Assembly: GCA_030278955.1 (NCBI GenBank)
Contig: JAOANR010000003.1
Location: 27,915,227 to 27,979,226, forward strand
DNA: 64,000 nt
Direction: 5' to 3'
DNA from: Hygrophila difformis
Lineage: Eukaryota > Streptophyta > Magnoliopsida > Lamiales > Acanthaceae
Below, piece by piece: positions 20,428-60,800 of the stretch (positions are counted from its first letter, which is position 1; each line of letters begins with the position of its first letter). Both the position numbers and the translations under genes were made by a program. Below the pieces are notes generated by a model. It had not been told where the DNA came from. It saw only the letters and a list, made by a program, of their open reading frames with translations, and searched no databases.

Positions 20428-20447
20428 CAACTTCGGGGACGAAGTTG
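20428..20447 (+). other. PPT-proximal stem-loop, gag-only element
   Basis: Perfect 7-bp stem CAACTTC/GAAGTTG with loop GGGGAC, six nt before the purine tract. Confidence 0.75.
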
Positions 20448-20453
20448 ATTCTT

Positions 20454-20461
20454 AAGGGGGG
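20454..20461 (+). other. Polypurine tract of gag-only element
   Basis: AAGGGGGG, followed by TAGAC and the LTR start TGTAATACCC at 20467. Confidence 0.85.
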
Positions 20462-20466
20462 TAGAC

Positions 20467-23400
20467 TGTAATACCCGGGGTTTTTACAACGCCCAAAGAA
20501 ACGAAATAAGATTTATTTCCGAGAAGAAAATAATTTATTACAATAAATTATTGCTCGGAAATGGCGTGACCGATAAATTCAAAGAATTCGAACCCAAATT
20601 TTGGTCAAGTCGAAATGGGACGAAAGAGGGAAAGGAAGCCCGAAGATATTCCATGGATTAATCCCAAAAGAATTGGAATTAAATTCAAGAAGGAAAAGAA
20701 TTTTAATTCCAAGAACCCGTGAAGTCGGAAATAAATTAATTAGATAAATTATTGCACGGGAACCACAGGACGACGAATTCAAGCCGACGGATTCGAACTC
20801 GACGAATTCTTGATTTCAAATATGAAATTCATTGGAGTCAAAATAAAATTTAGAAAGGAATCGTAACCCCAGAAATGACCCGAAAAGTCGAACCGAAAAC
20901 GTAGGGGATAGAAACCCGATCGAGAAAAGAAGAAAAGACCCGACGGACCACGCGGACCGCCGAACCGGCCGGTCCGGCCGGCCCGCGCTGTCCGCGCGCC
21001 GCCGCGCGGCCACCGCGCGGCCAAGGGCGTCGCGACGCCAGGCCTGGCACGCGTGCTCCGCGCGACCATAGGGGTGGGTGCGCGCCACCTCCGCGCCAGA
21101 GGGGCTGAAGGTGCAATCTTTCCATTCGGGGGTGATTTTCTTGCCGAAATTACAACTCCCTTCGAGGGAAACCAAATCCCAGCCTTAAGGAAGGCTTAGG
21201 GGCGGCTGGGGAGCCTCAAAACCCTAATCCCACAGAAAACCCATCCCCACCATACTTACAAACTCCCTCTCCAAGCCAAACCCTCCCGACGAAGCTTTCC
21301 GGCGAACATTCCGGCGACGACGAGGTGAACGGGACTGAGCCACGGCTTCATAGAACCTTGGTAAGTCTTAATATATCGTTCCATCAGTCCATGAGTCTCC
21401 AAAACTCGAATTCTAACACTATTTCCTTACTACGATTTCACGTCGGAAAACGAACAAAAAGCGATCGGAGAAGTTGGCCGTTCGTCGTGACCCTAGGACG
21501 TCCGGAAACCCAATCCAGCGACCCTATCATCATTCTAAGTAAGTTAACACCTTACTCACAAATTTTTGCGGTTGTTTGTTGTTTAAATCTCGAGATATAG
21601 GCTTGTAACAAAAATCGGTTTTCAAAAACCCTATTTTCGTCCAATTTTAAAGACTCGCCAAAAACTCGACCTTCGGGAATTCAAACCGAAAACTTTTCAA
21701 CATAGAAGTTGTTCCTAACACCTTTATCTATCTTGTGTCCAAATTTCAGCCATTGACATTAAGTTTTGATATCCCAACTTTCGCCATGAACTTTCTGTAT
21801 TGAACCGAACCGTTTAAATCTGTGACAGATTCCTTCATTCAACTTGATGCATGTTTTTCACCCATTTTTCGAATGATTTAACTTTGCATTTCTAAACAAA
21901 AGTTGTAGATAATTGTGTCTAGATTATGCCTACAAAATTTCACGAATTTTGGTGTTCATTTGATATGTCAAACGGCCAAGTTTTTAGAACTGTTTTGAAT
22001 TCGTTTTAAGGGCCATGAGTATGCAGTGAGTTGCACTCGATTTTTGAGTACCAAGAATTCATTATTTCCAAAAACTTAAAACATGAAAGTTGTTCCTTAA
22101 TGTGTCGTGTAGTTACTGTAAAAATTTCACATCGATTGGTTTTGAAATGAATTTTTAATCGGCGTTGCACGAACCTGTGACGAAAACGGTTTTTGAAACA
22201 TAAATTATTCTTTGCAACAAACTCGGATTTCAACTCACTTCGGAACCTTATTTCCAAAAACTTAAAACATGAAAGTTGTTCGTATGTGTGTTTTTGAATT
22301 ACTGTAAAAGTTTCAGAATTTTTGGAGAAAAGACGAATTTTTAATTAAGAAAGGCGTAAACTGCCTCGAATAGGATTTTTCGAACTTGAGAAAACTCGAA
22401 CTATGAAAACGCGATATCGATCCTTTGATAACTTTGAAATACGAACTTTCGAAAAATCCCGTTCACTAGGCTGAGCCGATCTTCATACTATCATTATCTT
22501 TGAGACTGCCTCGTTAGTGATCTCGCGCGCTGCGCTTTATTTGGACTGCCTCGTTAGTGGTCCTATGCCAAAACGGCAGTTGTGCACATGGCCTGCCAAA
22601 TCGGCAGTGGGAAATACACGGCCTGCCCGAGTGGTAGTGAAACCGTTTGAAAGGCCTGTCAAACGACAGTTGATATACATGCCTGTCAAATTGACAGTAG
22701 ATACACACGGCTTGCCGAAATGGCAATCGAGATACATGGCTAGCCAAAACGGCAGTCAATACTGATATGGCTGCGGCCGCCGGTTCACCGGCTAATTGAT
22801 TATGATTTTTGAGATTGCCTCGTTAGTGATCTCTCTTGTGTGGTGTCCTCTTCTTAGTTGCGGGATAAAATATAAAAGACTTGTGTGAGTGTTGATTACG
22901 CTTAAATCTTTTGTATCATGTTTTTAAATTACGCATTTAAATTACGTCATTTAAGTTATGCTTTTAAATTCCGCTTTTAAATTCCGCTTTTAAATTATGC
23001 ATAGTCGTCTTGAATAAATTAAACATGTTTTCCGCTGCGAATAAAATATGGATTTTTAAAGTAATGCATGACGAGTGAATCTTTGGATTTAAACACATGT
23101 AACCCCTTAAATTGTTTTGTTAGGGCTTAACTTACTCAGTATTTTATATACTGATAAAACCCGTTGTTCATTTTTCCATTACAGAGTACGGAGCATGATC
23201 ATGCATCGGGGGATCACTTTGGATATTGGCTATTTATTTACATGACTTGCATGCGGGTTTGTTGACCCGAGTTTTTGCCATGTCGGCCCATATTTAAATT
23301 TCCGCTGCAACATATTATTCTTATTCATGTATGGATGATGATACACTATTATTTTTAAGTAATTCCGGACTTGCTTTTAAAACTTTTTCCAACACCTATA

Positions 23401-23497
23401 GCCTTGCATCTCTTTAGTAAGCTCGGAGAAACCGTGTCTTGCTAGGGAGGTGCGGCGGTGACACCTCGGCCTGGGTTATCAAATCCGGGGTGTTACA
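20467..23497 (+). repeat. 3' LTR of gag-only element
   Basis: Same length (3031 bp) and order of parts as 15413-18443, with its 190-bp modules at 21706-22344 and hairpin array at 22566-22755. Ends TGTTACA at 23497, followed by CTTTT. Confidence 0.93.
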
Positions 23498-23502
23498 CTT
23501 TT
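23498..23502. repeat. target site duplication CTTTT (right, gag-only element)
   Basis: Second copy of the 5-bp duplication; the A LTR continues TTGCTTCTATTTTC after it exactly as in the uninterrupted copy near 6810. Confidence 0.92.
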
Positions 23503-24121
23503 TGCTTCTATTTTCTTCTTCTCTCTTCTTGTTTTTCTGAAATTGGAGAAGTGATTTTGAGGGTGAGGTTGGAACGGTGGTCGGAAACGACGGAGGACGG
23601 CGGTGGAGTGGTGGTTGGAGAAGGGCTGTCGAGGTTGGTGGATTTGGGCAGGAGGTTGGGTGGTGGCGACGAGGGGGCTTCTGGCGGCGGATCTGGAGTT
23701 TGGTGGTGGCGATGGCTGCTGCGGGTGGAGGTGCAGTGGCCGTGGGTGACTGTGGTGGTGGGTGGAGCTATGTGTTGACGGAGATGGCGGATGAGGGCAG
23801 CGGGGGCTGCGGTGGTGGCGACGAGGGATGAAGATGGTGGTGGCGCTGCGCTGGTCGGAAAGGGGTGTCGGAAATGGTGGCTCGGGTTTGGAATGGTGGA
23901 GACGGGACGGCAGTGGTGGAGGATATGCGGCCGTGAAGGGCGGAGGAAGTTTCGGAAATGGAGGCTGTAGGCGGAGGTGCCTGGCGGAGATGAGCTGTGG
24001 ACTGATGTGGTGGTGGTTCGCCGGAGGTGGCCGCCGGCCGGCGGTGGCGGCGCCGGCGGCAGGGGGCTAGGGTTAAGGTTAGGGTAGGGTTGGGCTTAGT
24101 GGTTTGGGCTTTTGGGTGATT

Positions 24122-24621
24122 NNNNNNNNNNNNNNNNNNNNNNNNNNNNNNNNNNNNNNNNNNNNNNNNNNNNNNNNNNNNNNNNNNNNNNNNNNNNNNN
24201 NNNNNNNNNNNNNNNNNNNNNNNNNNNNNNNNNNNNNNNNNNNNNNNNNNNNNNNNNNNNNNNNNNNNNNNNNNNNNNNNNNNNNNNNNNNNNNNNNNNN
24301 NNNNNNNNNNNNNNNNNNNNNNNNNNNNNNNNNNNNNNNNNNNNNNNNNNNNNNNNNNNNNNNNNNNNNNNNNNNNNNNNNNNNNNNNNNNNNNNNNNNN
24401 NNNNNNNNNNNNNNNNNNNNNNNNNNNNNNNNNNNNNNNNNNNNNNNNNNNNNNNNNNNNNNNNNNNNNNNNNNNNNNNNNNNNNNNNNNNNNNNNNNNN
24501 NNNNNNNNNNNNNNNNNNNNNNNNNNNNNNNNNNNNNNNNNNNNNNNNNNNNNNNNNNNNNNNNNNNNNNNNNNNNNNNNNNNNNNNNNNNNNNNNNNNN
24601 NNNNNNNNNNNNNNNNNNNNN
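24122..24621. other. assembly gap, 500 N
   Basis: Exactly 500 N, a typical placeholder for a scaffold join. The left flank ends TTTTGGGTGATT and the right begins GGGCCTGAGACAAG; in the other A LTR (7420-7445) these are directly adjacent, so no base appears to be missing. Confidence 0.95.
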
Positions 24622-25175: not shown

Positions 25176-25180
25176 GTGGT
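25176..25180. repeat. target site duplication GTGGT (right, element A)
   Basis: Second copy, directly after ATTATCA. With one copy removed, gene X is in frame across the insertion. Confidence 0.9.
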
Positions 25181-26402: not shown

Positions 26403-26573
26403 CTGACGCAAATTTTTCAAAAATTCGCGAATCCAAAATATTCAAATCATATCTATTCGATTTTTGGGATCCTAAACAGCATTATACTAACTCCAAATCA
26501 TATGTTTAGTGTATATTTGGATCTAGATTAAATCAATCCCGCCATATCTCAACAAAATCAAGATTTCACCCCC

Positions 26574-26689: not shown

Positions 26690-28147
26690 ATGAGACCAAA
26701 GAGAAAGAATAACCCAAGAAACAATGGTGGAAAGAAATTGAAAGCCACAGAGCCTGCTCCATCACAGACACCAGAAATTAATGAACCCATTCTGGAGCCG
26801 GCTGCTGTGGGTGCTGAAGATGAGTTTGTGAACAATCTGGTAGTTCCCGATTCATATAATGGTTACGATACTTCTTTCAATTCTGCTCAACCAACGGAGG
26901 ATGATCCACAGCAAGAAGAAGATGTCGCTGAATCCCCGGAGGAAATCTCACCAGAAATTCCTCGTGAATCTAAAACCAAGAGGAAGAGTCACAATAGAAA
27001 GAATGATACTACCCCTCTGGAAGAATTAACAGGAGATACGTTTAATCCAGCTATTTTCATCAATCAAACTGCATATTCTTATTATCAGAAGATGGTGGAA
27101 AGATGGATTATTCCGGATAAAGGGTTCACTGAAGCTGACATGGAGCGATTTTCGGTTCATGATGCTCTCATGAGTTGAGGATGGATGAAATTTGTTGCGC
27201 ATCCGGAAGGAGTTTATTCTTGGGAGCTTACCAGACAGTTCTTGTGCAATGCTCAGTATGATCGTTATACCTCATGGATTAGGGGAGTGCCTGTGCCATA
27301 TGATCCCGCAGTAATCAATGAACTTTATGGTACTGTGGATGTTTCTTGCCCAGCTACGAAGAAGAAGCACTTTCATGGCCCTATTCATGAAGAGGAAGGA
27401 GGACCCAAATTGGAGAAAAGAATTTTGAAAGAGATGTTTGAAACTCAAAAGAAGGTGGCCTACATAGGAGAGAAGAAGGAGAATGTTGTAGCTACTTTAA
27501 TGGCTGCACCGCTTTATCAGATCTACCTGCTCTACAAGCATAAGGTATTTCCTACTTCGCACACTTCACAACCGAGTGCAGAGGAGCTTTATTTTGTGTA
27601 TTGTGTGAAGAACGGGTTGCCTATTGATATTGGAGAGATGATAGCATATGAGCTGGATAAAATGGCGTCTGACACTGCACGGATTGTGCTGGGATTTCCT
27701 GCACTGATCTGGACACTTTGTGAGAGAGCTGGAGTGAATATGACGGCCTATGCTCATGATGTGAAGCCAAAGCCTCCTATCTCCTTCAAGAATTTCTATA
27801 ATAAGCCTGGAGTAAAGTGTGCAGAGCTTGGTTACCCTACTACATCCCGTGGGACACCCACTTGTCATCCTGATAGACCTAGTACATCTGGTACTAAGGT
27901 GGAGCCTGCAGAGATCGCAATCAATAGGATGACCTATGAGATTCATCAGTTTAGAGAGGAGATGAAGAGGAAGGAGGATAGTACACGAGCACAAATTTCA
28001 CAACTTTCTAGTAGACTTGAATTCTTCATGTCTGAAAGTCTAGGTGATCGATATATTCCTCCTACTACTAGTTCGAGCTCTACAGGGAATGATGATGTTC
28101 CTAGGGAAAATGAAGTAGGTGATTCGGATGGATCTTTAGAAATCTAG
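26690..28147 (+). pseudogene. gene Y: ORF1-like plant transposon protein, one in-frame stop
   Basis: One frame of 486 codons from ATG 26690 (context GCCACCATGA) to TAG 28145-28147, broken only by TGA at 27176-27178. At that place gene X has Arg, so a CGA to TGA change is likely. Order of parts: basic N-terminus with a nuclear-targeting-like KRKNNPRNN, acidic linker, YSYYQKMVERWIIPDKGFTE, FVAHPEGVYSWELTRQFLCN, VPYDPAVINELYGTVDV, FPTSHTSQPSAEELYFVYCV, IVLGFPALIWTLCERAGVNM, and a coiled-coil-like C-terminus (REEMKRKEDSTRAQISQLSS). It is a full-length paralogue of gene X and more distantly of the Athila ORF1 at 50676. It lies between missing pol and a 3' LTR, the ORF1 position of Athila elements. 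Function unknown; an envelope-like role has been proposed for this position but nothing here shows it. Confidence 0.78.
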
Positions 28148-29517: not shown

Positions 29518-29538
29518 ATTGCTCAAGGGACGAGCAAT
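29518..29538 (+). other. PPT-proximal stem-loop, gene Y element
   Basis: Perfect 7-bp stem ATTGCTC/GAGCAAT with the 7-nt loop AAGGGAC, four nt before the purine tract. Confidence 0.75.
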
Positions 29539-29542
29539 ATTT

Positions 29543-31398: not shown

Positions 31399-31943
31399 TG
31401 TAATACCCCAGATTTTTATCAACGCCCAAAGGAATAAAATTTATTCCGATCAATGTCGAAATATCTCCGAGAAGAAGAAAATAATTTATCACAATAAATT
31501 ATTGCTCGGAAATAAAACGCCGATAGATTCAAATTCAAAACGGAATAAAAGAGGGAAAGGAAGCCCGAAGACATTCCATGAATTGAGTCAAGATAATTGG
31601 AATTAAATTCAAGAAGGAAAAGAATTTTAATTCCAAGAACCCGTGAAGTCGGAAGAAATTTAATGATACAAGTTATTGCACGGGAATCAAAAGACGACAA
31701 ATTGGAAGCCGACGAACCCGAGAAATCGCCATCGAAAATTTAAATCCAAAAATAAAGAATTGGATTTAAATTATTAAAACCGAAATAATTCCGAGAGAGC
31801 GGAATTTATTATTTACCGGAAGATAACAACTCGAAACGAGTTTATCGAATTGTCCCAACAATCACGGATAATTCCCACATTATGATTTTTATTTTTGTAG
31901 ATAAGGAATCTTAATATTAAAAAAAAAAAAAAAATATTAAAAG

Positions 31944-32015
31944 TTACTGTAGCACGTGTCTACTGTAGCAGTACTGTAGCAGTACTGTAGCACGTGCGGG
32001 TACTGTAGCAGCCGA
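31944..32015 (+). repeat. TACTGTAGCA tandem motif (six copies)
   Basis: Six copies of TACTGTAGCA, two followed by CGTG, lie within 70 nt directly after the A-run in the U3-like part of the LTR. The pattern suggests repeated protein binding sites; that is inference. Copies recur in LTRs b and c. Confidence 0.75.
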
Positions 32016-32554
32016 TCTCTTGTCGGATTTTTGTCCCTTTAATGCCAAAAATACACCCCCAACACCCCATTATCACCCATCTACTTCATTTCTTCACCCA
32101 AAAACACTCCCAAAACTCTCCCAAAGCCAAAACACCTTTCCGGCGAACTTCCGACGAACTTCCGGCAACTTTCCGGCAACCAAATCCGACCAAGGAAGTG
32201 TGTAGATCAAGGATCACAGTGCTTAGATCTTTGGTAAGTAGTATCTTAGGTTCTCAATCTCGTTTTTCCTCTCAAATCCCCAATCTAACTCTTGAATCGT
32301 TGATTGCAAATACGTTCGTGGCCAAAGTCGGGAACTTTGCGTTTCGTAGATCCGTTCGTAGGTGTTTGGACGACTCAAGAACACAATCTTTGTAAGTTAA
32401 CCTTACTATGGTTTTGGGTGACTTAAAATGCAACAAAAACATAGAGTTTTAAAAACTCTAAAATCTGTCAACAAGAGAAACCCTCAACGCAGCGTTTTCG
32501 TATGAATTTTTCAAACCTCTAAAGCTGCTCAAACAAGAAAACTCAAAACATGAA

Positions 32555-33380
32555 AAGTGTTCCTAAGACTTTGGTCTAGCTTCTGTAAAAATTTTAGAAT
32601 TTTTCATGATGTTTTGAAACCTGAAACCAACCCAAAACCGAAGAGTATTAAATCTGGATCTTAGAACTTTGGACAGATTTCACTCTCAATCTTGTTAGCC
32701 ATTTTGACCTTGGATCTAGGCCGATCTAGGATTGGTGTTGAACATGAAAGTTGTAGATCTATGAGTTTGGAATATTACTGTAAGTTTTTAGAATTTTTCG
32801 TTGAGATTTGAGCCTCCGAATCTGAGCCGATCCGATCTGCGTTAGTACTAATGTCAAGAACCTTGACAGATTTCTTAACCGAACTTGATGAGCATATTTC
32901 TATTACTTCGAGTGTTCAAACCTGAAAACTCAAAACTAAGATTTTGATCCAAAGATCATAAGCTATATTGTGTAAAAATTTCAAAGATTTTCATCAAGTT
33001 TTGATACCCCAAATCGTATCGAACATATTCTGCGTTTTAAGAATTGTCAAAGGATGACAGATTTCATAGCCGATCTTGATGAGCTTATTCCTATCATTTA
33101 TAGTCCGAACCAATCTTTGAGTTCTAAACAAAAGTTGTTGGAAATCATGTCTAGTATGTCTCTGTAAAATTTCAGAATTTTTGGAGTCCATTTGATATGA
33201 TAAAAAGTCGAATCTTTTAACGTTGTCAAACCTGAATCCTGACAGCATACCATTTCTGTAGAAAACTTGATTTTTTTGACATACTTCCCATCGTTTTTCC
33301 GAAAAACTTAAAACACGAAAGTTGTTCGTTGGGATGTTTTTGAGCTACTGTACAAATTTCAGAACAATCGCCTAAGAAAT
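32555..33380 (+). repeat. five ~190-bp degenerate modules in LTR a
   Basis: Anchors (AAGTTGT or its variants) lie near 32555, 32748, 32938, 33132 and 33319, spacings 193, 190, 194 and 187 bp. Each is followed by a CTGTAAAAATTTCAGAATTTT-like block. Same design as in the 15413 LTR. Confidence 0.75.
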
Positions 33381-33574
33381 GGATTTTTAAACCAAAAAGG
33401 CGCAAACTATGACATCGATCGATTTTTGAAATCTTTTAAACAACGATCGAGACGTTGGAATTACGATAAAGCTATATTTTTGAAAAATCCCGTTACACCA
33501 AATAAAAACATTTTCTGTAAAAGAATTCTTTAGAAACATTGGGGAATTTATGACCAAGTTTGATATTATCAATA

Positions 33575-33895
33575 TGGCCAGACGGCTTGTGGACATAAGA
33601 GCCCAAGCGAACGGCTAGTGGACATAAGAGCCCTAGCGAATGGTCGACCAAACGGCTTGTGGACATAAGAGCCCAAGCGAACGGCCAGTGGACATAAGAG
33701 CCCTGGCGAATGGTTATAAATATTGATTATGAGGATTGCGGTCACAAGAGCCCTGGTGTATGGTGAACTATAAAAGAAACGAAAAATATTTTGAGAAGTG
33801 ATACTTATGAAATTGGCTGAGGCCGCCGGATCACCGGCTAAATGATACTTTTGAAATTGGCTGCGGCCGCCGGATCACCGGCTAAATGATATTTT
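33575..33895 (+). repeat. 70-bp tandem repeat and duplicated GCCGCCGGATCACCGGC block
   Basis: Two 70-bp units (33583 and 33653) built from GGCTTGTGGACATAAGAGCC and CTAGTGGACATAAGAGCC, a partial third, then two copies of GGCCGCCGGATCACCGGCTA near 33822 and 33865. They hold the place of the hairpin array in the 15413 LTR, which ends with one GGCCGCCGGTTCACCGGCTA. Confidence 0.75.
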
Positions 33896-34429
33896 GATGA
33901 AATGGTTATGTAACGGGAGAACAAAATATTTAAGGTTTTTAAGTCTTTATGCCTTGCAAATCATTTTCCTACAAGAAATCTTTTTATAAAATTTAACTAA
34001 AGGCTTTGAAACCCCTAACCCATGCTATGTGTTAGCTTACTCAGCGCGTTTTTGCTGACCCAAACCATATATCTCCTTTTTCTTACAGAGTACGAAGAAT
34101 ATGCATCGTCATATGCATACATGGGAACATTAAGGGAAATCTTTATTTTAAATCCCTGCGTTTAATTACGACTTGCATGAACGGGAATGTTTAATCCCGT
34201 GTTTTGGCCATGTTGGCCCTATATTTAATTTCCGCTGCACAATTTATATTTCTGCTGCAATTTTGATGTACTATCTTTAAGTTATATATGAATGGGCTGT
34301 TTGAATATTTTAAATTCTGAAAAACCATAGCCTTGCATCTCTTTAGTGAGCTCGGAGAAACCGTGTCTTGCTAGGGAGGTGTGGCGGTGGCATCCCGGCC
34401 TGGGTTACCAAAACCGGGGTGTTACAATG

Positions 34430-34441
34430 TGGTATCAGAGC
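34430..34441 (+). other. Primer binding site, initiator Met-tRNA type (internal 1)
   Basis: TGGTATCAGAGC, three nt after LTR a. Confidence 0.92.
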
Positions 34442-34932
34442 CCGGAATATTTTAAAACTACTATTTTAAAGAGCCCGGATTATTTTGAAGCTATTATATT
34501 TTAAAGAGCCCAATTATTATTTTGAAGTTAAAGCCCAAATTTTTAGCCCAAAATTTTTTTTTAGAAGCCCAAGAAATTATCTTGGCCCAATAGCCTTGTT
34601 TTTATTTAAAGCCCAAATAATTTATTTCTTTCGGCCCAATATAGTGGCCCAAACCTTTTATCCTTATTTTAATCTATCCATGGAATAAATTTATTTTTAA
34701 AACCCATGGATAAATAAATGCATGCATAAAATTTTTTTTATTGGGGGGATCACATATACATATGCATACATAAATATTTACACTAACTCTTTTTATGTGA
34801 ACTATCGGTAATAAGAAACACTCCTACCTTAGAACTCGACATGATCTTGACTTAGGAGCGCTTGCTAAAGACTAACTTTGCCTTAGTCCTAGATCTTGAT
34901 CACTTAGAAACTCATCTTCGCGTGCTTCTAAA

Positions 34933-34974
34933 ATGACACCTAGAAGAATACTGAGGAAGGATCATATGCGATGA
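34933..34974 (+). pseudogene. gag stub (13 codons)
   Basis: The short frame MTPRRILRKDHMR lies exactly where gag starts in the 15413 element (MAPKGKSRKE) and shares the upstream TTAGAAACTCATCTTC leader. The rest of gag has been deleted, joining the start to the 3' non-coding part. A second copy is at 38877-38918. Confidence 0.7.
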
Positions 34975-35005
34975 TACCCGAACATAGTTGTGAATAATAC
35001 ATAGG

Positions 35006-35302
35006 CAGTTATGGGGACATAACTGTAATCTTAAGGGGGGGAGGATGTAATACCCCGTAAGAAAGCATAAGCATTTATTTTGAAACTCGAAAATTTTGTA
35101 TCCCAAATAAATTTTTGAACTACGTAATGACTTGATCCCTTCACAGGGTACGTAGGCAACCTGGAAATTTCAATTCTGGGTTCAGTCAAACAATAATCAA
35201 ACAACAAAAAAATAATCAACAATCGAACAATAATTCAATAACACAATATCGCAAATAGTAAACAAAAGGACCATAACTCTTAGCGCGAGAAAAGCTGAAA
35301 CA
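35006..35302 (+). other. relic 3' junction in internal 1 (hairpin, purine tract, LTR start)
   Basis: 35006-35025 is a perfect stem CAGTTAT/ATAACTG with loop GGGGAC; AAGGGGGGGAGGA follows (35033-35045) and then TGTAATACCCC (35046), an LTR-like start. The conserved GAACTACGT block lies inside this relic (35117-35191). Confidence 0.7.
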
Positions 35303-35322
35303 CAACTTCGAGGACGAAGTTG
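35303..35322 (+). other. PPT-proximal stem-loop, internal 1
   Basis: Stem CAACTTC/GAAGTTG, loop GAGGAC, six nt before AAGGGGGG (35329-35336). Confidence 0.75.
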
Positions 35323-35328
35323 ATTCTT

Positions 35329-35336
35329 AAGGGGGG
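35329..35336 (+). other. Polypurine tract, internal 1
   Basis: AAGGGGGG, then TGGAG and the LTR b start at 35342. Confidence 0.82.
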
Positions 35337-35341
35337 TGGAG

Positions 35342-38300
35342 TGTAATACCCCAGATTTTTATCAACGCCCAAAGGAATAAAATTTATTCCGATCAATGTC
35401 GAAATATCTCCGAGAAGAAGAAAATAATTTATCACAATAAATTATTGCTCGGAAATAAAACGCCGATAGATTCAAATTCAAAACGGAATAAAAGAGGGAA
35501 AGGAAGCCCGAAGACATTCCATGAATTGAGTCAAGATAATTGGAATTAAATTCAAGAAGGAAAAGAATTTTAATTCCAAGAACCCGTGAAGTCGGAAGAA
35601 ATTTAATGATACAAGTTATTGCACGGGAATCAAAAGACGACAAATTGGAAGCCGACGAACCCGAGAAATCGCCATCGAAAATTTAAATCCAAAAATAAAG
35701 AATTGGATTTAAATTATTAAAACCGAAATAATTCCGAGAGAGCGGAATTTATTATTTACCGGAAGATAACAACTCGAAACGAGTTTATCGAATTGTCCCA
35801 ACAATCACGGATAATTCCCACATTATGATTTTTATTTTTGTAGATAAGGAATCTTAATATTAAAAAAAAAAAAAAAAATATTAAAAGTTACTGTAGCACG
35901 TGTCTACTGTAGCAGTACTGTAGCAGTACTGTAGCACGTGCGGGTACTGTAGCAGCCGATCTCTTGTCGGATTTTTGTCCCTTTAATGCCAAAAATACAC
36001 CCCCAACACCCCATTATCACCCATCTACTTCATTTCTTCACCCAAAAACACTCCCAAAACTCTCCCAAAGCCAAAACACCTTTCCGGCGAACTTCCGACG
36101 AACTTCCGGCAACTTTCCGGCAACCAAATCCGACCAAGGAAGTGTGTAGATCAAGGATCACAGTGCTTAGATCTTTGGTAAGTAGTATCTTAGGTTCTCA
36201 ATCTCGTTTTTCCTCTCAAATCCCCAATCTAACTCTTGAATCGTTGATTGCAAATACGTTCGTGGCCAAAGTCGGGAACTTTGCGTTTCGTAGATCCGTT
36301 CGTAGGTGTTTGGACGACTCAAGAACACAATCTTTGTAAGTTAACCTTACTATGGTTTTGGGTGACTTAAAATGCAACAAAAACATAGAGTTTTAAAAAC
36401 TCTAAAATCTGTCAACAAGAGAAACCCTCAACGCAGCGTTTTCGTATGAATTTTTCAAACCTCTAAAGCTGCTCAAACAAGAAAACTCAAAACATGAAAA
36501 GTGTTCCTAAGACTTTGGTCTAGCTTCTGTAAAAATTTTAGAATTTTTCATGATGTTTTGAAACCTGAAACCAACCCAAAACCGAAGAGTATTAAATCTG
36601 GATCTTAGAACTTTGGACAGATTTCACTCTCAATCTTGTTAGCCATTTTGACCTTGGATCTAGGCCGATCTAGGATTGGTGTTGAACATGAAAGTTGTAG
36701 ATCTATGAGTTTGGAATATTACTGTAAGTTTTTAGAATTTTTCGTTGAGATTTGAGCCTCCGAATCTGAGCCGATCCGATCTGCGTTAGTACTAATGTCA
36801 AGAACCTTGACAGATTTCTTAACCGAACTTGATGAGCATATTTCTATTACTTCGAGTGTTCAAACCTGAAAACTCAAAACTAAGATTTTGATCCAAAGAT
36901 CATAAGCTATATTGTGTAAAAATTTCAAAGATTTTCATCAAGTTTTGATACCCCAAATCGTATCGAACATATTCTGCGTTTTAAGAATTGTCAAAGGATG
37001 ACAGATTTCATAGCCGATCTTGATGAGCTTATTCCTATCATTTATAGTCCGAACCAATCTTTGAGTTCTAAACAAAAGTTGTTGGAAATCATGTCTAGTA
37101 TGTCTCTGTAAAATTTCAGAATTTTTGGAGTCCATTTGATATGATAAAAAGTCGAATCTTTTAACGTTGTCAAACCTGAATCCTGACAGCATACCATTTC
37201 TGTAGAAAACTTGATTTTTTTGACATACTTCCCATCGTTTTTCCGAAAAACTTAAAACACGAAAGTTGTTCGTTGGGATGTTTTTGAGCTACTGTACAAA
37301 TTTCAGAACAATCGCCTAAGAAATGGATTTTTAAACCAAAAAGGCGCAAACTATGACATCGATCGATTTTTGAAATCTTTTAAACAACGATCGAGACGTT
37401 GGAATTACGATAAAGCTATATTTTTGAAAAATCCCGTTACACCAAATAAAAACATTTTCTGTAAAAGAATTCTTTAGAAACATTGGGGAATTTATGACCA
37501 AGTTTGATATTATCAATATGGCCAGACGGCTTGTGGACATAAGAGCCCAAGCGAACGGCTAGTGGACATAAGAGCCCTAGCGAATGGTCGACCAAACGGC
37601 TTGTGGACATAAGAGCCCAAGCGAACGGCCAGTGGACATAAGAGCCCTGGCGAATGGTTATAAATATTGATTATGAGGATTGCGGTCACAAGAGCCCTGG
37701 TGTATGGTGAACTATAAAAGAAACGAAAAATATTTTGAGAAGTGATACTTATGAAATTGGCTGAGGCCGCCGGATCACCGGCTAAATGATACTTTTGAAA
37801 TTGGCTGCGGCCGCCGGATCACCGGCTAAATGATATTTTGATGAAATGGTTATGTAACGGGAGAACAAAATATTTAAGGTTTTTAAGTCTTTATGCCTTG
37901 CAAATCATTTTCCTACAAGAAATCTTTTTATAAAATTTAACTAAAGGCTTTGAAACCCCTAACCCATGCTATGTGTTAGCTTACTCAGCGCGTTTTTGCT
38001 GACCCAAACCATATATCTCCTTTTTCTTACAGAGTACGAAGAATATGCATCGTCATATGCATACATGGGAACATTAAGGGAAATCTTTATTTTAAATCCC
38101 TGCGTTTAATTACGACTTGCATGAACGGGAATGTTTAATCCCGTGTTTTGGCCATGTTGGCCCTATATTTAATTTCCGCTGCACAATTTATATTTCTGCT
38201 GCAATTTTGATGTACTATCTTTAAGTTATATATGAATGGGCTGTTTGAATATTTTAAATTCTGAAAAACCATAGCCTTGCATCTCTTTAGTGAGCTCGGA

Positions 38301-38370
38301 GAAACCGTGTCTTGCTAGGGAGGTGTGGCGGTGGCATCCCGGCCTGGGTTACCAAAACCGGGGTGTTACA
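35342..38370 (+). repeat. LTR b of the complex (3029 bp)
   Basis: Middle LTR, same as LTR a except for a run of 17 A (35862-35878) instead of 16. It is flanked by a purine tract on the left and a primer site on the right, so it serves as 3' LTR of one unit and 5' LTR of the next. Confidence 0.92.
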
Positions 38371-38373
38371 ATG

Positions 38374-38385
38374 TGGTATCAGAGC
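38374..38385 (+). other. Primer binding site, initiator Met-tRNA type (internal 2)
   Basis: TGGTATCAGAGC, three nt after LTR b. Confidence 0.92.
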
Positions 38386-39246
38386 CCGGAATATTTTAAA
38401 ACTACTATTTTAAAGAGCCCGGATTATTTTGAAGCTATTATATTTTAAAGAGCCCAATTATTATTTTGAAGTTAAAGCCCAAATTTTTAGCCCAAAATTT
38501 TTTTTTAGAAGCCCAAGAAATTATCTTGGCCCAATAGCCTTGTTTTTATTTAAAGCCCAAATAATTTATTTCTTTCGGCCCAATATAGTGGCCCAAACCT
38601 TTTATCCTTATTTTAATCTATCCATGGAATAAATTTATTTTTAAAACCCATGGATAAATAAATGCATGCATAAAATTTTTTTTATTGGGGGGATCACATA
38701 TACATATGCATACATAAATATTTACACTAACTCTTTTTATGTGAACTATCGGTAATAAGAAACACTCCTACCTTAGAACTCGACATGATCTTGACTTAGG
38801 AGCGCTTGCTAAAGACTAACTTTGCCTTAGTCCTAGATCTTGATCACTTAGAAACTCATCTTCGCGTGCTTCTAAAATGACACCTAGAAGAATACTGAGG
38901 AAGGATCATATGCGATGATACCCGAACATAGTTGTGAATAATACATAGGCAGTTATGGGGACATAACTGTAATCTTAAGGGGGGGAGGATGTAATACCCC
39001 GTAAGAAAGCATAAGCATTTATTTTGAAACTCGAAAATTTTGTATCCCAAATAAATTTTTGAACTACGTAATGACTTGATCCCTTCACAGGGTACGTAGG
39101 CAACCTGGAAATTTCAATTCTGGGTTCAGTCAAACAATAATCAAACAACAAAAAAATAATCAACAATCGAACAATAATTCAATAACACAATATCGCAAAT
39201 AGTAAACAAAAGGACCATAACTCTTAGCGCGAGAAAAGCTGAAACA

Positions 39247-39280
39247 CAACTTCAAGGACGAAGTTGATTCTTAAGGGGGG
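39247..39280 (+). other. PPT-proximal stem-loop and polypurine tract, internal 2
   Basis: Stem CAACTTC/GAAGTTG with loop AAGGAC (39247-39266), then AAGGGGGG at 39273-39280. The one substitution is in the loop and keeps a purine. Confidence 0.75.
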
Positions 39281-39285
39281 TGGAG

Positions 39286-42200
39286 TGTAATACCCCAGAT
39301 TTTTATCAACGCCCAAAGGAATAAAATTTATTCCGATCAATGTCGAAATATCTCCGAGAAGAAGAAAATAATTTATCACAATAAATTATTGCTCGGAAAT
39401 AAAACGCCGATAGATTCAAATTCAAAACGGAATAAAAGAGGGAAAGGAAGCCCGAAGACATTCCATGAATTGAGTCAAGATAATTGGAATTAAATTCAAG
39501 AAGGAAAAGAATTTTAATTCCAAGAACCCGTGAAGTCGGAAGAAATTTAATGATACAAGTTATTGCACGGGAATCAAAAGACGACAAATTGGAAGCCGAC
39601 GAACCCGAGAAATCGCCATCGAAAATTTAAATCCAAAAATAAAGAATTGGATTTAAATTATTAAAACCGAAATAATTCCGAGAGAGCGGAATTTATTATT
39701 TACCGGAAGATAACAACTCGAAACGAGTTTATCGAATTGTCCCAACAATCACGGATAATTCCCACATTATGATTTTTATTTTTGTAGATAAGGAATCTTA
39801 ATATTAAAAAAAAAAAAAAAAAATATTAAAAGTTACTGTAGCACGTGTCTACTGTAGCAGTACTGTAGCAGTACTGTAGCACGTGCGGGTACTGTAGCAG
39901 CCGATCTCTTGTCGGATTTTTGTCCCTTTAATGCCAAAAATACACCCCCAACACCCCATTATCACCCATCTACTTCATTTCTTCACCCAAAAACACTCCC
40001 AAAACTCTCCCAAAGCCAAAACACCTTTCCGGCGAACTTCCGACGAACTTCCGGCAACTTTCCGGCAACCAAATCCGACCAAGGAAGTGTGTAGATCAAG
40101 GATCACAGTGCTTAGATCTTTGGTAAGTAGTATCTTAGGTTCTCAATCTCGTTTTTCCTCTCAAATCCCCAATCTAACTCTTGAATCGTTGATTGCAAAT
40201 ACGTTCGTGGCCAAAGTCGGGAACTTTGCGTTTCGTAGATCCGTTCGTAGGTGTTTGGACGACTCAAGAACACAATCTTTGTAAGTTAACCTTACTATGG
40301 TTTTGGGTGACTTAAAATGCAACAAAAACATAGAGTTTTAAAAACTCTAAAATCTGTCAACAAGAGAAACCCTCAACGCAGCGTTTTCGTATGAATTTTT
40401 CAAACCTCTAAAGCTGCTCAAACAAGAAAACTCAAAACATGAAAAGTGTTCCTAAGACTTTGGTCTAGCTTCTGTAAAAATTTTAGAATTTTTCATGATG
40501 TTTTGAAACCTGAAACCAACCCAAAACCGAAGAGTATTAAATCTGGATCTTAGAACTTTGGACAGATTTCACTCTCAATCTTGTTAGCCATTTTGACCTT
40601 GGATCTAGGCCGATCTAGGATTGGTGTTGAACATGAAAGTTGTAGATCTATGAGTTTGGAATATTACTGTAAGTTTTTAGAATTTTTCGTTGAGATTTGA
40701 GCCTCCGAATCTGAGCCGATCCGATCTGCGTTAGTACTAATGTCAAGAACCTTGACAGATTTCTTAACCGAACTTGATGAGCATATTTCTATTACTTCGA
40801 GTGTTCAAACCTGAAAACTCAAAACTAAGATTTTGATCCAAAGATCATAAGCTATATTGTGTAAAAATTTCAAAGATTTTCATCAAGTTTTGATACCCCA
40901 AATCGTATCGAACATATTCTGCGTTTTAAGAATTGTCAAAGGATGACAGATTTCATAGCCGATCTTGATGAGCTTATTCCTATCATTTATAGTCCGAACC
41001 AATCTTTGAGTTCTAAACAAAAGTTGTTGGAAATCATGTCTAGTATGTCTCTGTAAAATTTCAGAATTTTTGGAGTCCATTTGATATGATAAAAAGTCGA
41101 ATCTTTTAACGTTGTCAAACCTGAATCCTGACAGCATACCATTTCTGTAGAAAACTTGATTTTTTTGACATACTTCCCATCGTTTTTCCGAAAAACTTAA
41201 AACACGAAAGTTGTTCGTTGGGATGTTTTTGAGCTACTGTACAAATTTCAGAACAATCGCCTAAGAAATGGATTTTTAAACCAAAAAGGCGCAAACTATG
41301 ACATCGATCGATTTTTGAAATCTTTTAAACAACGATCGAGACGTTGGAATTACGATAAAGCTATATTTTTGAAAAATCCCGTTACACCAAATAAAAACAT
41401 TTTCTGTAAAAGAATTCTTTAGAAACATTGGGGAATTTATGACCAAGTTTGATATTATCAATATGGCCAGACGGCTTGTGGACATAAGAGCCCAAGCGAA
41501 CGGCTAGTGGACATAAGAGCCCTAGCGAATGGTCGACCAAACGGCTTGTGGACATAAGAGCCCAAGCGAACGGCCAGTGGACATAAGAGCCCTGGCGAAT
41601 GGTTATAAATATTGATTATGAGGATTGCGGTCACAAGAGCCCTGGTGTATGGTGAACTATAAAAGAAACGAAAAATATTTTGAGAAGTGATACTTATGAA
41701 ATTGGCTGAGGCCGCCGGATCACCGGCTAAATGATACTTTTGAAATTGGCTGCGGCCGCCGGATCACCGGCTAAATGATATTTTGATGAAATGGTTATGT
41801 AACGGGAGAACAAAATATTTAAGGTTTTTAAGTCTTTATGCCTTGCAAATCATTTTCCTACAAGAAATCTTTTTATAAAATTTAACTAAAGGCTTTGAAA
41901 CCCCTAACCCATGCTATGTGTTAGCTTACTCAGCGCGTTTTTGCTGACCCAAACCATATATCTCCTTTTTCTTACAGAGTACGAAGAATATGCATCGTCA
42001 TATGCATACATGGGAACATTAAGGGAAATCTTTATTTTAAATCCCTGCGTTTAATTACGACTTGCATGAACGGGAATGTTTAATCCCGTGTTTTGGCCAT
42101 GTTGGCCCTATATTTAATTTCCGCTGCACAATTTATATTTCTGCTGCAATTTTGATGTACTATCTTTAAGTTATATATGAATGGGCTGTTTGAATATTTT

Positions 42201-42315
42201 AAATTCTGAAAAACCATAGCCTTGCATCTCTTTAGTGAGCTCGGAGAAACCGTGTCTTGCTAGGGAGGTGTGGCGGTGGCATCCCGGCCTGGGTTACCAA
42301 AACCGGGGTGTTACA
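39286..42315 (+). repeat. LTR c of the complex (3030 bp)
   Basis: Same as LTRs a and b except for a run of 18 A (39806-39823). Ends TGTTACA, followed by the AATAT duplication. Confidence 0.92.
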
Positions 42316-42320
42316 AATAT
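42316..42320. repeat. target site duplication AATAT (right, three-LTR complex)
   Basis: Second copy; host DNA of the Y LTR continues after it. Confidence 0.9.
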
Positions 42321-45930: not shown

Positions 45931-45961
45931 ACCTGCACAACCTGAAATTAATCCATGCAAT

Positions 45962-51918: not shown

Positions 51919-53188
51919 ACATGATTCAGAAGGTGGGATCGAGCTACCAATTTTGTTATCCTACACCAGTCCCTGCTGCCACATCCAAGCCACCACCTGC
52001 CTTACCTTTTAGCTCCTCCAATTGCGCTCCTCGCGGACCTACCTCCGTGGTAGCCACACATGCATTGAGCTAGAAGGTTGACTTACTTCTCCAGCAGCAA
52101 GCAGAGATGTCCAGACAGTTGGCAGCCTTCTTCGATCACATTGGTTTTAACCCCCACCTCCCTCCAGCCAATGACTCAGGGACATCCTTCTATCCTTTCT
52201 TTTTATTTTATTTATATTATTTTATTTTTACTTTCTATCTTTTGTTTCTTTTCTTTCCTGTTTCCATTTTTCTTTCTATCTTTTTATTTGGCATTGAGGA
52301 CACTGCCTGGTTCTGGTGGGGGGGGGGGGGGGGGGGGATTACATGTCACTTCTTGTACTTATCTCTGTATATGCCCTTGCTTGCCTTCTTGTCAAAATTT
52401 TAATTATTGATTGTTGATTAAATTCTTGATCTAGTCGATGATATAATTGTCAATTGGTATGCCTGGCGTGCTATTTATGTCCTTGTGAGATTTGAGCCTT
52501 ACTGAGCTTTCATTTTCATCATCATTACATGCTCATTTTCTTGATGTGGGAACATGGAAATTGCATCATTCTTGAATTTGCACAAAAATGCATGTGAACT
52601 CTTCATATTCTAGTATGCTAGCAAAATGATTTGGGCACTATGATTCACCTTACTGGCCTTATACACTTGCCTACCCATAATTTTCCAACTAGTGAACCCC
52701 TCTGAGCCTTATAAACTTTTTCCTTTGTGATACACTTTCCCCCTAGCCATTAGCCTTTTATTTCCTTTGGATCTTATCTGCTTGAATACGGAATAGAGGA
52801 TTAACTCTTGAGCTTGTTTATCATTAGTGCCGCATTGATGAGATGTTGCTGTTAGAGCCGTTATTGAAGAAGCAGATCATTTGTTCGAGTTTGATTTATA
52901 TTCCGCCCCTCTTCTTAAAAAAATGATAGATATATAGCTGGCACTATTGTTCCTCTAACCTCAGGGTTAAGAGGAAGGAGTTGAAATTCTGTCTGCAATG
53001 TCAGATATAGGGATTCCTCTAATAAGACGTGAAATCGAGCTATTGAAAGCCACTGATTGAGAAAAAAATGAAAAAAGGGAGAGGGGTAGAGACTTCTTGA
53101 TTGTTGCTATCATGTGTTCTGATGATTCATGGAGATTTAAGAAATTTATGGATTGACAGTCGATCTTATTATGAACAAGTCTTTTTGA
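51919..53188 (+). other. 3' non-coding region of element C, left of D
   Basis: No gene. It contains a stretch (51912-52307) of which a related copy sits in the 5' LTR of D, a PPT-like site (52290-52337), and 52933-53060, which resembles 55797-55930 in the D leader. The CTTTT-rich part near 52190-52280 is low complexity. Confidence 0.65.
52290..52337 (+). other. cryptic PPT-like site: hairpin GGCATT/ACTGCC and a run of 20 G
   Basis: 52290-52307 folds as GGCATT/ACTGCC (one mismatch) around the loop GAGGAC. It is followed by TGGTTCTGGT and 20 G (52318-52337). It resembles the PPT hairpins but lies far upstream of the true 3' LTR. Confidence 0.55.
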
Positions 53189-58430: not shown

Positions 58431-58993
58431 TTAGTTTGCATGCGGTGCACATGTTTAAATTGACGACCGAGGACCACCCGAATCCATATTGTTTGCAGTG
58501 GGTGAACAATAGTGGAAAATCAAAGGTTGTCAAGCGCGCGAAAGTTCAAATCGCCATTGGCCCGTATTCTGAAGAAATCTACTGTGATGTTATGCCCATG
58601 AATACGTGCCACATACTGCTAGGTCGACCATGGTTGTACGACAACAATGTTGCCTATCAGGGGAGAGTGAATTCAATAACGTTCGCCCATGAACAAAGAG
58701 AGTACAACATCAAATCGCTGTCCCCCAACATTGTCCGAGTTGACCGCGAAGGGCTTCTAGAGGAAATACAACTGGAAGAGAAAGAATACCTGGCCCGAAC
58801 AAAGGAGCATCCACAGAGCTCAATCACCCTCCATTCTGAGGCGCCGGCTATGGAGAACCTACCACGAATTTGTTCCTTAATTTTTTGTCACTCTGAAAAT
58901 TTCTCTAAATTTAATTCTGGTACTATATCTAATTTGATTAATTTTTCTACAGGTACCCAAGGAAATCAAGATGAAATTTTTCTAAACAAATAA
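58403..58993 (+). pseudogene. Retropepsin of element D
   Basis: The catalytic motif LIVDSGSC is in the gag frame (Asp 58408-58410). After a frameshift near 58428 the rest is in another frame: FKLTTEDHPNPYCLQWVNNS, then CDVMPMNTCHILLGRPWLYD, the typical C-terminal half of gypsy retropepsins. TAA at 58991 is followed by more sequence in the same frame (to about 59290) of no known domain, and RT never begins. The protease would cut Gag, but the frameshift and stop make it inactive as it stands. Confidence 0.8.
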
Positions 58994-59269
58994 GGTAAAA
59001 TTGTTCCAGTTGATGACAAAATTGATTTATCTAAAAATTGTCATTTGTTTTGCAGGCAATTGAAATCGGGAGCTAAGCTGGAGCGCAAAATGAAATTCAC
59101 CTCCGAAGCAGAATCGGATAGATTTATCTGCTCAATGGATAATATTTCTAATGAATTTCTAGCTCAATCTTGCTTTACCGAGATTACTGAAAAATGTCAA
59201 TCTTATGGGATAACGGTTCGTGCAGGTCTACCTTATTTGGTTGATCCATCTCAAATAATAACTCCTTCC

Positions 59270-59286
59270 GCTTTGGAGTCCAAAGC
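59270..59286 (+). other. PPT-proximal stem-loop, element D
   Basis: Perfect 7-bp stem GCTTTGG/CCAAAGC with the 3-nt loop AGT, five nt before the purine tract. Same position as in the other elements but without the RRGGRC loop. Confidence 0.65.
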
Positions 59287-59291
59287 TTCTC

Positions 59292-59303
59292 AAGGGGAGG
59301 GAA
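59292..59303 (+). other. Polypurine tract of element D
   Basis: AAGGGGAGGGAA directly before the LTR start TGACGTGG. Confidence 0.88.
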
Positions 59304-60439
59304 TGACGTGGAAGTCTGGATCAACCCACTCAAATGCTTGAACCGGCCCGGAAGATTCACTGAACGAATTGCCAGTCTTCCCAGGACCACAGAATTCCAA
59401 GCTGAAATCAATCGGGGAGAAGAAAGCAATCTAGAAGCTGTAACTTTGATCCAATCGGAGGAATTGGGGATCGCACATACATGCCATGCATGGGCTCTCC
59501 AATTCTACATTGAAGAAGGGAATACAGTCAACACAGCCGCCAGAGCATCACCGGAGCCGCCGGAGCATCACCGGAGTTCGCCGGAAGTTGGCCGGAAGTT
59601 GGCCGGCGCCGCCGCCATCGCCGGCCGGAGATCGGTCAATGGTCGGAAGTGTTGAACTGTTGTTTTATTTAATTCAGACTTATTTCAGTTTAAACAAGGC
59701 ATGTAATAATTTAAAACAACTACTGTAGGGTCCGCTCTAGACCAGTTGAATTCAGGATCCCAGTTGCTAGACTCTAGTCCGGAGACTCCCAGTCGCTAGA
59801 CTCCAGTCCGGAGACTCCCAGTCACCCAGTCGCTAGACTCCTGTCCGGAGATTCCTATTCGCTAGACTACGTCTAGCGACACAGTTTTTGCCTAGCGACA
59901 GGCAGCGTCCAGAATGCCAATTTTTGTGTTTTCTAGGGTTTTCTTTGTATTTTCCATTCCCGTTTTACCCCTGTAACTTGGAGGCCTATATATATGTCCT
60001 CCTAAACATTGTATTGCATCTTTTGGCTTAATATTATTGAGAACACTCCTCTCTTATTTTCCAAAGATCAACTAGAGTTTGTGGGAACCGAAAACCCTCA
60101 ATCAAGTACATAGCTCAAAACAATACCGTGATATAGACTCAGGCTAGATTCACACGATTCGGATTCTTGAAGCAAATCCGACGATCGATTATATCCATTG
60201 TTGGAGGATTTGGAGGGGACGGTGTTGTTTAGCATTATTGTCTTGATATTTTCTTCATCCTTGGATAGCTTCCATATCCCTTTTATTTTCTTGTTCAATC
60301 CACCATTTGGCATCACTCGCCTTTTGGTAATCAAATCTAAAAAAATCCAAAACAACCTTCCCCTTTTGGCACCAAGTGTCAATCGGCAATCATCCAAATA
60401 ATATTGTATCCAATCCAAGATCCGGGTTGATTCATGGCA
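59304..60439 (+). repeat. 3' LTR of element D (1136 bp)
   Basis: Same ends as the 5' LTR; no captured segment; three full 29-bp units. Followed by GTTGG. Confidence 0.9.
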
Positions 60440-60444
60440 GTTGG
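60440..60444. repeat. target site duplication GTTGG (right, element D)
   Basis: Second copy of the duplication. Confidence 0.9.
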
Positions 60445-60762
60445 TCCTCGATTCCTTAGCCTTTATATCCTTTTTCCTACCCCAACCATGGCCCCGTTAT
60501 AACCTTGGTTAAAGGCCCTTTGATTGCTAGTTGCTACTTTATGATTATGGTTTGATTTGATTGATGTGCAAATTTATGGAATTAGTACTTTTCTTTCTTG
60601 TGCTTTGAGTAAACACTTAGCCTATGCACTTGAGAGTGAGTGAGCACTTTTATATATTCCCCATCCGGTGAGAGCATTGTTGGGCATACCTGTTGTGCAA
60701 TTAAGTTATTGGCATGATTGAATTTGATTTTGACTTGTGGTGTCTTTGTTTTGACTTGATGG
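60445..60762 (+). other. 3' non-coding region of element C, right of D
   Basis: About 320 bp with no frame of interest; it continues the region ending at 53188 and leads to the hairpin and purine tract. Confidence 0.6.
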
Positions 60763-60782
60763 CATGCTTGAGGGCAAGCATG
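60763..60782 (+). other. PPT-proximal stem-loop, element C
   Basis: Perfect 7-bp stem CATGCTT/AAGCATG with loop GAGGGC, four nt before the purine tract. Confidence 0.78.
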
Positions 60783-60786
60783 GAGT

Positions 60787-60800
60787 AAGTGTGGGGGGAT
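60787..60800 (+). other. Polypurine tract of element C
   Basis: AAGTGTGGGGGGAT directly before TGATATTCATC. Confidence 0.85.

What the first reader, a model, noticed from the sequence alone, without database searches (positions are those of the whole stretch)
20428..60800. Conserved stem-loop just before the polypurine tract, with covarying stems and a constant RRGGRC loop
Directly before each true or relic purine tract I find a stem of about 7 bp. The stems (5' arm/3' arm) and loops are: CAACTTC/GAAGTTG with GGGGAC (20428), with GAGGAC (20279, 35303) and with AAGGAC (39247); CAGTTAT/ATAACTG with GGGGAC (35006, 38950); CATGCTT/AAGCATG with GAGGGC (60763); ATTGCTC/GAGCAAT with AAGGGAC (29518); ACTGCTC/GATCAGT, one mismatch, with GGGGAC (8005-8024, minus strand); GGCATT/ACTGCC, one mismatch, with GAGGAC at the cryptic site (52290). 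Stem sequence differs between elements but stays almost wholly complementary, while the loop stays nearly fixed, and AAG of the tract follows 3-7 nt later. Athila-like and Tekay-like elements share it. Element D has a stem at the same place with a different loop. This points to a structured RNA (or DNA) signal for RNase H cleavage at the tract, plus-strand priming, packaging or recognition by a shared protein. GAGGAC near the 3' end is familiar to me as sequence; I do not know of a description of it as a covarying hairpin.
Basis: partly seen in the sequence, partly recalled or inferred. Interest (0 to 1): 0.88.

Follow-up and report, generated by a model that had tools for sequence, protein, structure and literature searches.

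The report
Covarying hairpin before retrotransposon polypurine tract
Plant gypsy-type retrotransposons in this genome carry a small hairpin at a near-fixed distance before the purine tract that primes their second DNA strand; its stem letters differ between families while base pairing is kept, so it looks like a real structural signal, for which I found no earlier description.

Summary
Seven perfect 7-bp RRGGRC hairpins and one with a mismatch lie in the window, all directly 5' of purine tracts; 20 Markov sequences gave one perfect hit in total. The cryptic site at 52290 is rejected.
Sampling the 915-Mb host genome by purine tract gave further stem types: at an internal Athila-like tract, in L023, and two with other loops. 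On 12 chosen representatives 97.9% of cells pair and 7 of 8 pairs change on both sides. A hairpin model puts 22 of 23 hits of at least 17 bits at purine tracts.
Stem end to LTR start is 17-21 nt at 42 of 45 hairpin sites, many of them related copies. I propose that the hairpin stalls reverse transcriptase just after it copies the tract, setting RNase H at the tract/U3 junction; this is inferred.
Against: within type A, G.U variants are no commoner than mirror mismatches (366 against 435); yeast Ty3 RT spacing is about 13 bp; some ends lack the hairpin.
Nine searches of an open-access library showed no earlier description.

The parts
20279..20298 (+). type A hairpin CAACTTC-GAGGAC-GAAGTTG, upstream (relic) module
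20305..20317 (+). purine tract of the upstream module, followed by an LTR-start-like TGTAACACCC at 20318
20428..20447 (+). type A hairpin CAACTTC-GGGGAC-GAAGTTG of the terminal module
20454..20466 (+). terminal purine tract; 3' LTR starts at 20467 (LTR pair 15413-18443 / 20467-23497)
35006..35025 (+). type B hairpin CAGTTAT-GGGGAC-ATAACTG; the type that lies on the pol stop codon in copies with an open frame (this copy has none)
35303..35322 (+). type A hairpin, terminal module; tract 35329-35341, LTR from 35342
38950..38969 (+). type B hairpin, second unit of the tandem three-LTR array
39247..39266 (+). type A hairpin with AAGGAC loop (the loop-closing G is A in this copy); tract 39273-39285, LTR from 39286
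60763..60782 (+). type C hairpin CATGCTT-GAGGGC-AAGCATG; tract from 60787
29518..29538 (+). type H hairpin ATTGCTC-AAGGGAC-GAGCAAT; tract from 29543
   Evidence: not a hit of the model (7-nt loop)
8005..8024 (-). type I hairpin ACTGCTC-GGGGAC-GATCAGT with one mismatch; tract 8001-7988, repeat end (LTR-like) from 7987 downwards
59270..59286 (+). type G hairpin GCTTTGG-AGT-CCAAAGC (other loop); tract from 59292, right copy of an LTR-like repeat pair from 59304
52290..52309 (+). claimed cryptic site; rejected
   Evidence: hairpin absent from the minimum-energy fold, z +1.67; not among the hits

Best explanation
Shown: directly 5' of purine tracts of several kinds of LTR element in this genome there is a stem of 6-9 bp, usually with an RGGR tetraloop closed by G-C, whose stem letters differ between types while pairing is kept, and whose 3' foot mostly lies 17-21 nt before the first base of the LTR. 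Inferred: the hairpin forms in the genomic RNA and acts in cis in making the plus-strand primer. Minus-strand synthesis copies U3, then the tract, then meets the stem. Reverse transcriptase stalls at or just before its foot, and a stalled enzyme places its RNase H site about 13 (yeast Ty3) to 18 (HIV-1) bp behind its polymerase site, that is, at or close to the tract/U3 junction, where the primer 3' end must be cut. The pyrimidine-rich spacer (ATTCTT, TTCTC, CTTT) would be the T-box known from other elements. The near-constant loop may be a fold-stabilising cap or a protein contact; that is open.
For: Pairing across 12 representatives: 97.9% of cells pair against 61.2% in shuffles, 35 cells with double changes against 10.8, covariation 0.945 against 0.236 (each 0 of 500), slid controls at most 40.6% paired. 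Permuting 3' arms among 10 representatives: 0 of 200000 reach the observed 65 of 70 pairs; among 7 types 31 of 200000 reach 45 of 49, about what the unpermuted order alone would give. RNAalifold finds the same helix unprompted. One copy within type A has a compensatory pair (L006: A-T to G-C). Blind to the hairpin: of 23 sites found by an Athila-like tract pattern, 20 carry it in place (L053, L055 and L066 with a weakened or broken pair; the commonest subtype has one mismatch), 2 carry it decayed, 1 lacks it. A tract+LTR-start expression finds 11 sites in the window (5) and the arbitrary stretches (6), and 11 of 11 carry type A or B, but that expression does not catch two hairpin-less ends listed against. 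Spacing 17-21 nt at 42 of 45 hairpin sites. Internal tracts carry hairpins as well: ACATTG/CAATGT in L050, L058, L062, and type B at the end of pol. Literature, passages only: polymerase-dependent RNase H cutting 18 bp behind the polymerase site (PMC3185654); RNA structure can stall RT and so influence RNase H cuts (PMC4439019, citing Suo and Johnson 1997, not seen).
Against: Within type A, copies with G.U-keeping stem changes number 366 and copies with the mirror-image mismatches 435 (10674 and 10743 less 10308), so there is no sign inside that family that plus-strand RNA pairing is what is kept. Two of five measures do not stand clear of shuffles (pairs with double change 7 against 5.2, 49 of 500; further pair types 14 against 11.8, 77 of 500). 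Yeast Ty3 RT separates its sites by about 13 bp (PMC5371799, passages), which fits only if the enzyme stops some nt before the stem. PMC3616985 holds it unlikely that RNA structure as such modulates PPT function in HIV/SIV (passages), and PMC4439019 says the HIV element would not account for the exact cut. Some ends lack the hairpin (L028:3436; L032:5638 minus); type I has a fixed mismatch; a 9-bp stem at window 9958 minus ends 11 nt before a TGAT after a tract-like stretch (not shown to be an element end). Many of the 45 spacing sites are related copies, 10 loci having been fetched by their type A hairpin. Lineages are related and shuffles do not correct for that. One genome. No experiment.
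Confidence: 0.5

Rival explanations
1. Coding constraint: the hairpin is the C-terminus of pol, and the letters are kept for the protein.
For: Type B lies on the end of a frame that reads ...VMGT* or VMGA* in 4 of 7 copies examined (L007, L026, L027, L033); in L007 and L027 that frame matches PF24626 above its cut-off and Chromo below its cut-off (L026 and L033 not scanned). Type A reads NFEDEVDS* or alike in one frame. PMC3605345 reports an extra tract overlapping the pol stop in Bongo3 (passages).
Against: In type B the stop codon is inside the 3' arm and the bases after it still pair with the coding 5' arm. At type A sites the longest open stretch upstream is 34 codons in the NFEDEV frame and 43 in any frame; at type C sites 84 codons. 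Coding does not predict complementarity or covariation.
Confidence: 0.08
2. A DNA dyad: the inverted repeat is bound in double-stranded form by integrase or a host protein near the LTR end.
For: Arms are inverted repeats and rarely vary within type A (10308 exact copies, against 366 and 435 with transitions of the two kinds tested); no G.U preference within the family.
Against: A binding site would keep its letters across families; here all seven outer pairs change while loop letters mostly stay. Internal tracts away from LTR ends carry it too.
Confidence: 0.14
3. An RNA packaging, dimerisation or Gag-recognition hairpin that happens to lie beside the tract.
For: A constant purine loop on a variable stem suits recognition by a protein or by another loop (inference); it is kept in an element with only a gag ORF and in ORF-less elements.
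Against: Near-fixed distance to the tract/U3 junction and presence at internal tracts are not predicted; the loop is not self-complementary (by inspection).
Confidence: 0.15
4. A recombining 3'-end module copied between elements, without present function; stems reflect descent from a few founders.
For: Hairpin+tract+LTR-start islands stay alike between otherwise unlike 3' ends and are stacked in series.
Against: Stem types differ at all seven outer pairs yet remain complementary, which descent without selection does not give.
Confidence: 0.08

Closest known systems
[quoted passage not shown] 2010, PMC2829016; passages and one section seen)
   Same: A secondary-structure element at the plus-strand primer, proposed there to guide RNase H; several purine tracts per element.
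   Different: There the tract is in the loop and the right arm lies inside the LTR (arms on average 19-28 bp); here the whole hairpin is short, upstream of the tract, with a near-constant purine loop, in gypsy-type elements, and repeats at extra tracts, whereas Sirevirus extra tracts are said to lack the inverted repeat.
T-box/U-box before the PPT (retroviruses, Ty1) and TCTT before the PPT of fission-yeast elements (PMC10085805, passages)
   Same: Pyrimidine-rich letters directly 5' of the tract; here ATTCTT, TAATCTT, TTCTC, CTTT.
   Different: Those are described as sequence motifs; no hairpin is described in the passages seen.
Structured cPPT/PPT of HIV-1 and SIV (PMC3616985, PMC4439019; passages)
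   Same: RNA structure near PPTs shared by central and 3' tracts; RT pausing raised as a possible link in the second paper.
   Different: There the G-rich end of the tract itself is paired; here the tract is outside the helix.
Extra PPT overlapping the pol stop codon in Bongo3 of Beta vulgaris (PMC3605345, passages)
   Same: Same place as the type B module: a tract at the end of pol in chromoviruses.
   Different: No hairpin is mentioned in the passages seen.

Membership tests
PPT-flanking inverted repeat of Ty1/copia (Sirevirus) type | tract lies inside the loop; right arm inside the 3' LTR | tested here: not met
   both arms are upstream of the tract, mostly 17-21 nt before the LTR
PPT-flanking inverted repeat of Ty1/copia (Sirevirus) type | only the terminal PPT has the structure | tested here: not met
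   upstream tracts carry hairpins as well
Known structured RNA family (Rfam 15) | match at gathering score | tested here: not met
   0 matches in the window
Covarying RNA hairpin (general) | compensatory changes keep pairing across types | tested here: met
   three of five measures clear of shuffles, two not
Covarying RNA hairpin (general) | within-family preference for G.U over mismatch on the transcribed strand | tested here: not met
   366 against 435; type A only
Covarying RNA hairpin (general) | covariation beyond phylogeny (R-scape) | not testable with these tools
   program not on hand; few independent lineages
Ty3/gypsy chromovirus 3' end (type B) | chromo-integrase C-terminus directly upstream | tested here: inconclusive
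Athila lineage (type C) | RT phylogeny | not tested
Plus-strand priming signal | effect on RNase H cutting at the PPT/U3 junction | not testable with these tools
   needs an in-vitro assay

The most novel reading that the evidence does not exclude
Plant gypsy-type elements of both chromovirus and Athila-like kinds use an RNA brake: a covarying hairpin whose foot is set one polymerase-to-RNase-H distance before the tract/U3 junction, so that the stalled enzyme cuts the plus-strand primer end. Distance, not sequence, is the signal, and extra tracts with their own brakes let an element reset where its LTR begins.
Probability: 0.3. Interest if true: 0.82.

Novelty: new variant of a known kind. Interest (0 to 1): 0.64.

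Why it matters
How reverse transcriptase picks one purine tract and cuts it to the base is not settled, and purine tracts lack a common consensus sequence (PMC3185511, passages). A hairpin at a near-fixed distance from the cut, kept through complete changes of stem sequence, would offer a positional answer that can be tested with short RNA templates. It would also give a structure-based mark for 3' ends of plant gypsy elements, including ORF-less ones, and help to read stacked relic ends.

Tried and rejected
Cryptic site 52290: no hairpin in the fold and no model hit. Coding: kept as a rival but does not explain the 3' arms. Mirror test for G.U preference within type A: negative. Other organisms: viral-contig scans gave no sign of plant elements; one search confirmed no relative of the query; the 13 loop+tract matches have 0-4 of 7 stem positions paired and served as a negative control; L001-L004 showed no RRGGRC stem. 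The window holds 1022 perfect 7-bp stems with any 6-nt loop, against 4-28 in 20 Markov sequences; I take these to be simple repeats, not checked. Not answered and dropped: the patterns (a third tract type and a copia tract), so absence from copia elements is untested; and a compensatory-pair count.

Rows dropped before counts: the 12 rows were chosen by me to stand for types and subtypes; type H was left out for its 7-nt loop, types F (L028:2172, GGTTGA/TCAACC, loop TGGA) and G (L020, 59270) for other loops; row E lacks its last two columns. Two earlier alignments were set aside: as out of register in the 3' arm (it was later folded as it stood), for my wrong coordinates. In one search, 36 further loose matches had no 6-bp stem; many do not look like element ends, but L028:3436, L032:5638 minus, three type I copies, one type H copy (L030:9071) and two decayed type C copies (L048, L066) do; L014 is counted twice among the 45. 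In one search, 14 of 25 sites lie in loci fetched by their type A hairpin and are not counted as blind; that expression misses L028:3436 and L032:5638. In one search some sites also lie in such loci.
Full report
CHECK. A script over both strands finds the seven perfect and one one-mismatch RRGGRC hairpins at the stated places and no others among 141 RRGGRC words. First-order Markov sequences give almost none (1 in 20 runs). In one search RNAfold was given eight RRGGRC-type sites and the element D stem: the hairpin forms at 7 of the 8 (mostly as 8 bp with a tetraloop closed by G-C; weakly at 8024) and not at 52290, and element D forms its own. Whole 63-71-nt folds have z between -2.72 and +1.67, several no better than shuffles, so the case rests on comparison, not on energy.

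SURROUNDINGS. Repeat pairs place 20428 directly before the 3' LTR at 20467, 35303 and 39247 before LTRs at 35342 and 39286 of a tandem array of three nearly identical LTRs, 8024-8005 (-) before a repeat end at 7987, and the element D stem (59270-59286) before the right copy of a repeat pair at 59304. The element of 20428 has a gag ORF (18972-20033, Retrotrans_gag) ending well before the hairpins; no stop-to-stop frame of 150 aa lies in the tandem array.

GENOME. The host assembly has 915 Mb. The exact type A 20-mer occurs 10308 times, its reversed control 0. A tract+LTR-start pattern occurs 7145 times. Twenty 10-kb stretches at places I picked by round numbers hold 14 RRGGRC stems with up to one mismatch, 12 of them before purine tracts. 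Of 23 sites found by an Athila-like tract pattern alone, 20 carry the hairpin in place (some with a weakened or broken pair), 2 carry it decayed, 1 is joined to unrelated sequence. A looser tract scan over held sequence: 30 of 70 tract-like sites have an upstream stem score of 6.5 or more, against 23 of 453 random places (2 of the 30 are simple repeats, and some loci had been fetched by their hairpin). New types seen there or: GCGCAAC/GTTGCGT (L023), ACATTG/CAATGT at an internal tract (L050, L058, L062), GGTTGA/TCAACC with loop TGGA (L028), GCTTTGG/CCAAAGC with loop AGT (L020, window).

COVARIATION. On 12 chosen representatives the 8-bp helix has 97.9% paired cells; 7 of 8 pairs change on both sides; 35 double-change cells against a shuffled mean of 10.8; covariation 0.945 against 0.236; slid versions reach at most 40.6% paired. 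Two further measures are not clear of shuffles (49 and 77 of 500). RNAalifold gives the same helix and its inner six pairs on the longer, partly misaligned set. Permutation of 3' arms: 0 of 200000 for 10 representatives; for 7 types 31 of 200000, about the share of the identity order. A covariance model over 264 kb gives 25 hits up to E 3; of 23 with at least 17 bits, 22 stand at purine tracts, many of them copies of training types, and one (L031:9717, long loop, in what reads as pol) does not. The model does not reach types F, G and H. In 168 kb of viral contigs the best score is 13.2 bits.

POSITION. The distance from stem to LTR start is 17-21 nt at 42 of 45 hairpin sites (25 of them at 19); the other three are stems at 25, 12 and 11 nt, of which one (window 9958 minus) runs into a tract-like stretch. 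The 42 cover seven stem types (A, B, C, D, F, G, H) but most are type A or B. LTR starts were supported by repeat pairs for only some and otherwise read from the TG start.

CODING. Type B coincides with the pol end: in 4 of 7 copies examined (L007, L026, L027, L033) an open frame ends ...VMGT* or VMGA* with the stop inside the 3' arm; L007 and L027 match PF24626 and, below cut-off, Chromo. Type A lies 137-315 nt further on where both are present, and no open stretch longer than 43 codons leads into it in sampled copies. Coding can therefore hold the 5' arm of type B but not the complement.

NEGATIVE RESULT. Because the type A stem is an exact inverted repeat, each G.U-making transition has a mirror transition that makes a mismatch. 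Counts: 10674 with G.U-type letters allowed, 10743 with mirror letters, 10308 exact; so 366 against 435. Most copies are probably decaying after insertion, which would hide selection (inference), but the test gives no support for the RNA reading within this family.

MECHANISM. What stays nearly constant is the place of the stem relative to the tract/U3 junction. A polymerase stalled at the foot would hold RNase H 13 bp (Ty3, PMC5371799) to 18 bp (HIV-1, PMC3185654) behind it; with a stop a few nt before the stem either value comes near the junction. RNA structure can stall RT and so influence cuts (PMC4439019). Shown here: sequence, complementarity, covariation across types, spacing, link to tracts. 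Inferred: folding in RNA, stalling, cutting.

KNOWN OR NEW. Nine searches of an open-access library and passages of thirteen papers (one section) showed no hairpin 5' of the PPT in gypsy-type elements. Subscription papers and supplements were not searched. [quoted passage not shown]

Noticed in passing
window 20279-20466 and 35006-35341; L005-L011, L013, L014, L025-L027, L033: Hairpin+tract modules in series, 55 to 343 nt apart (L009 has four); where both types occur, type B is upstream of type A in the copies seen. The upstream tracts are mostly followed by TGTAAYACCC-like letters, as if former LTR starts had been left in the 3' UTR and the LTR boundary reset.
   Followed up: partly
window 31399-42316: Tandem array of three nearly identical 3.0-kb LTRs (99.9%) with two internal units.
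   Followed up: no
L050-L052 (C3:16464030, 16470716, 16477365): Three Athila-like 3' ends spaced about 6.7 kb apart in one direction, probably another tandem array.
   Followed up: no
L050:79, L058, L062: Internal purine tract about 1.4 kb before the terminal one, with its own hairpin ACATTG-GGGA-CAATGT.
   Followed up: partly
window 27179-28147: ORF with PF20167 (Transposase_32, putative plant transposon protein) upstream of the type H hairpin at 29518.
   Followed up: no
window 24122-24621: Run of 500 N between two parts of a repeat.
   Followed up: no
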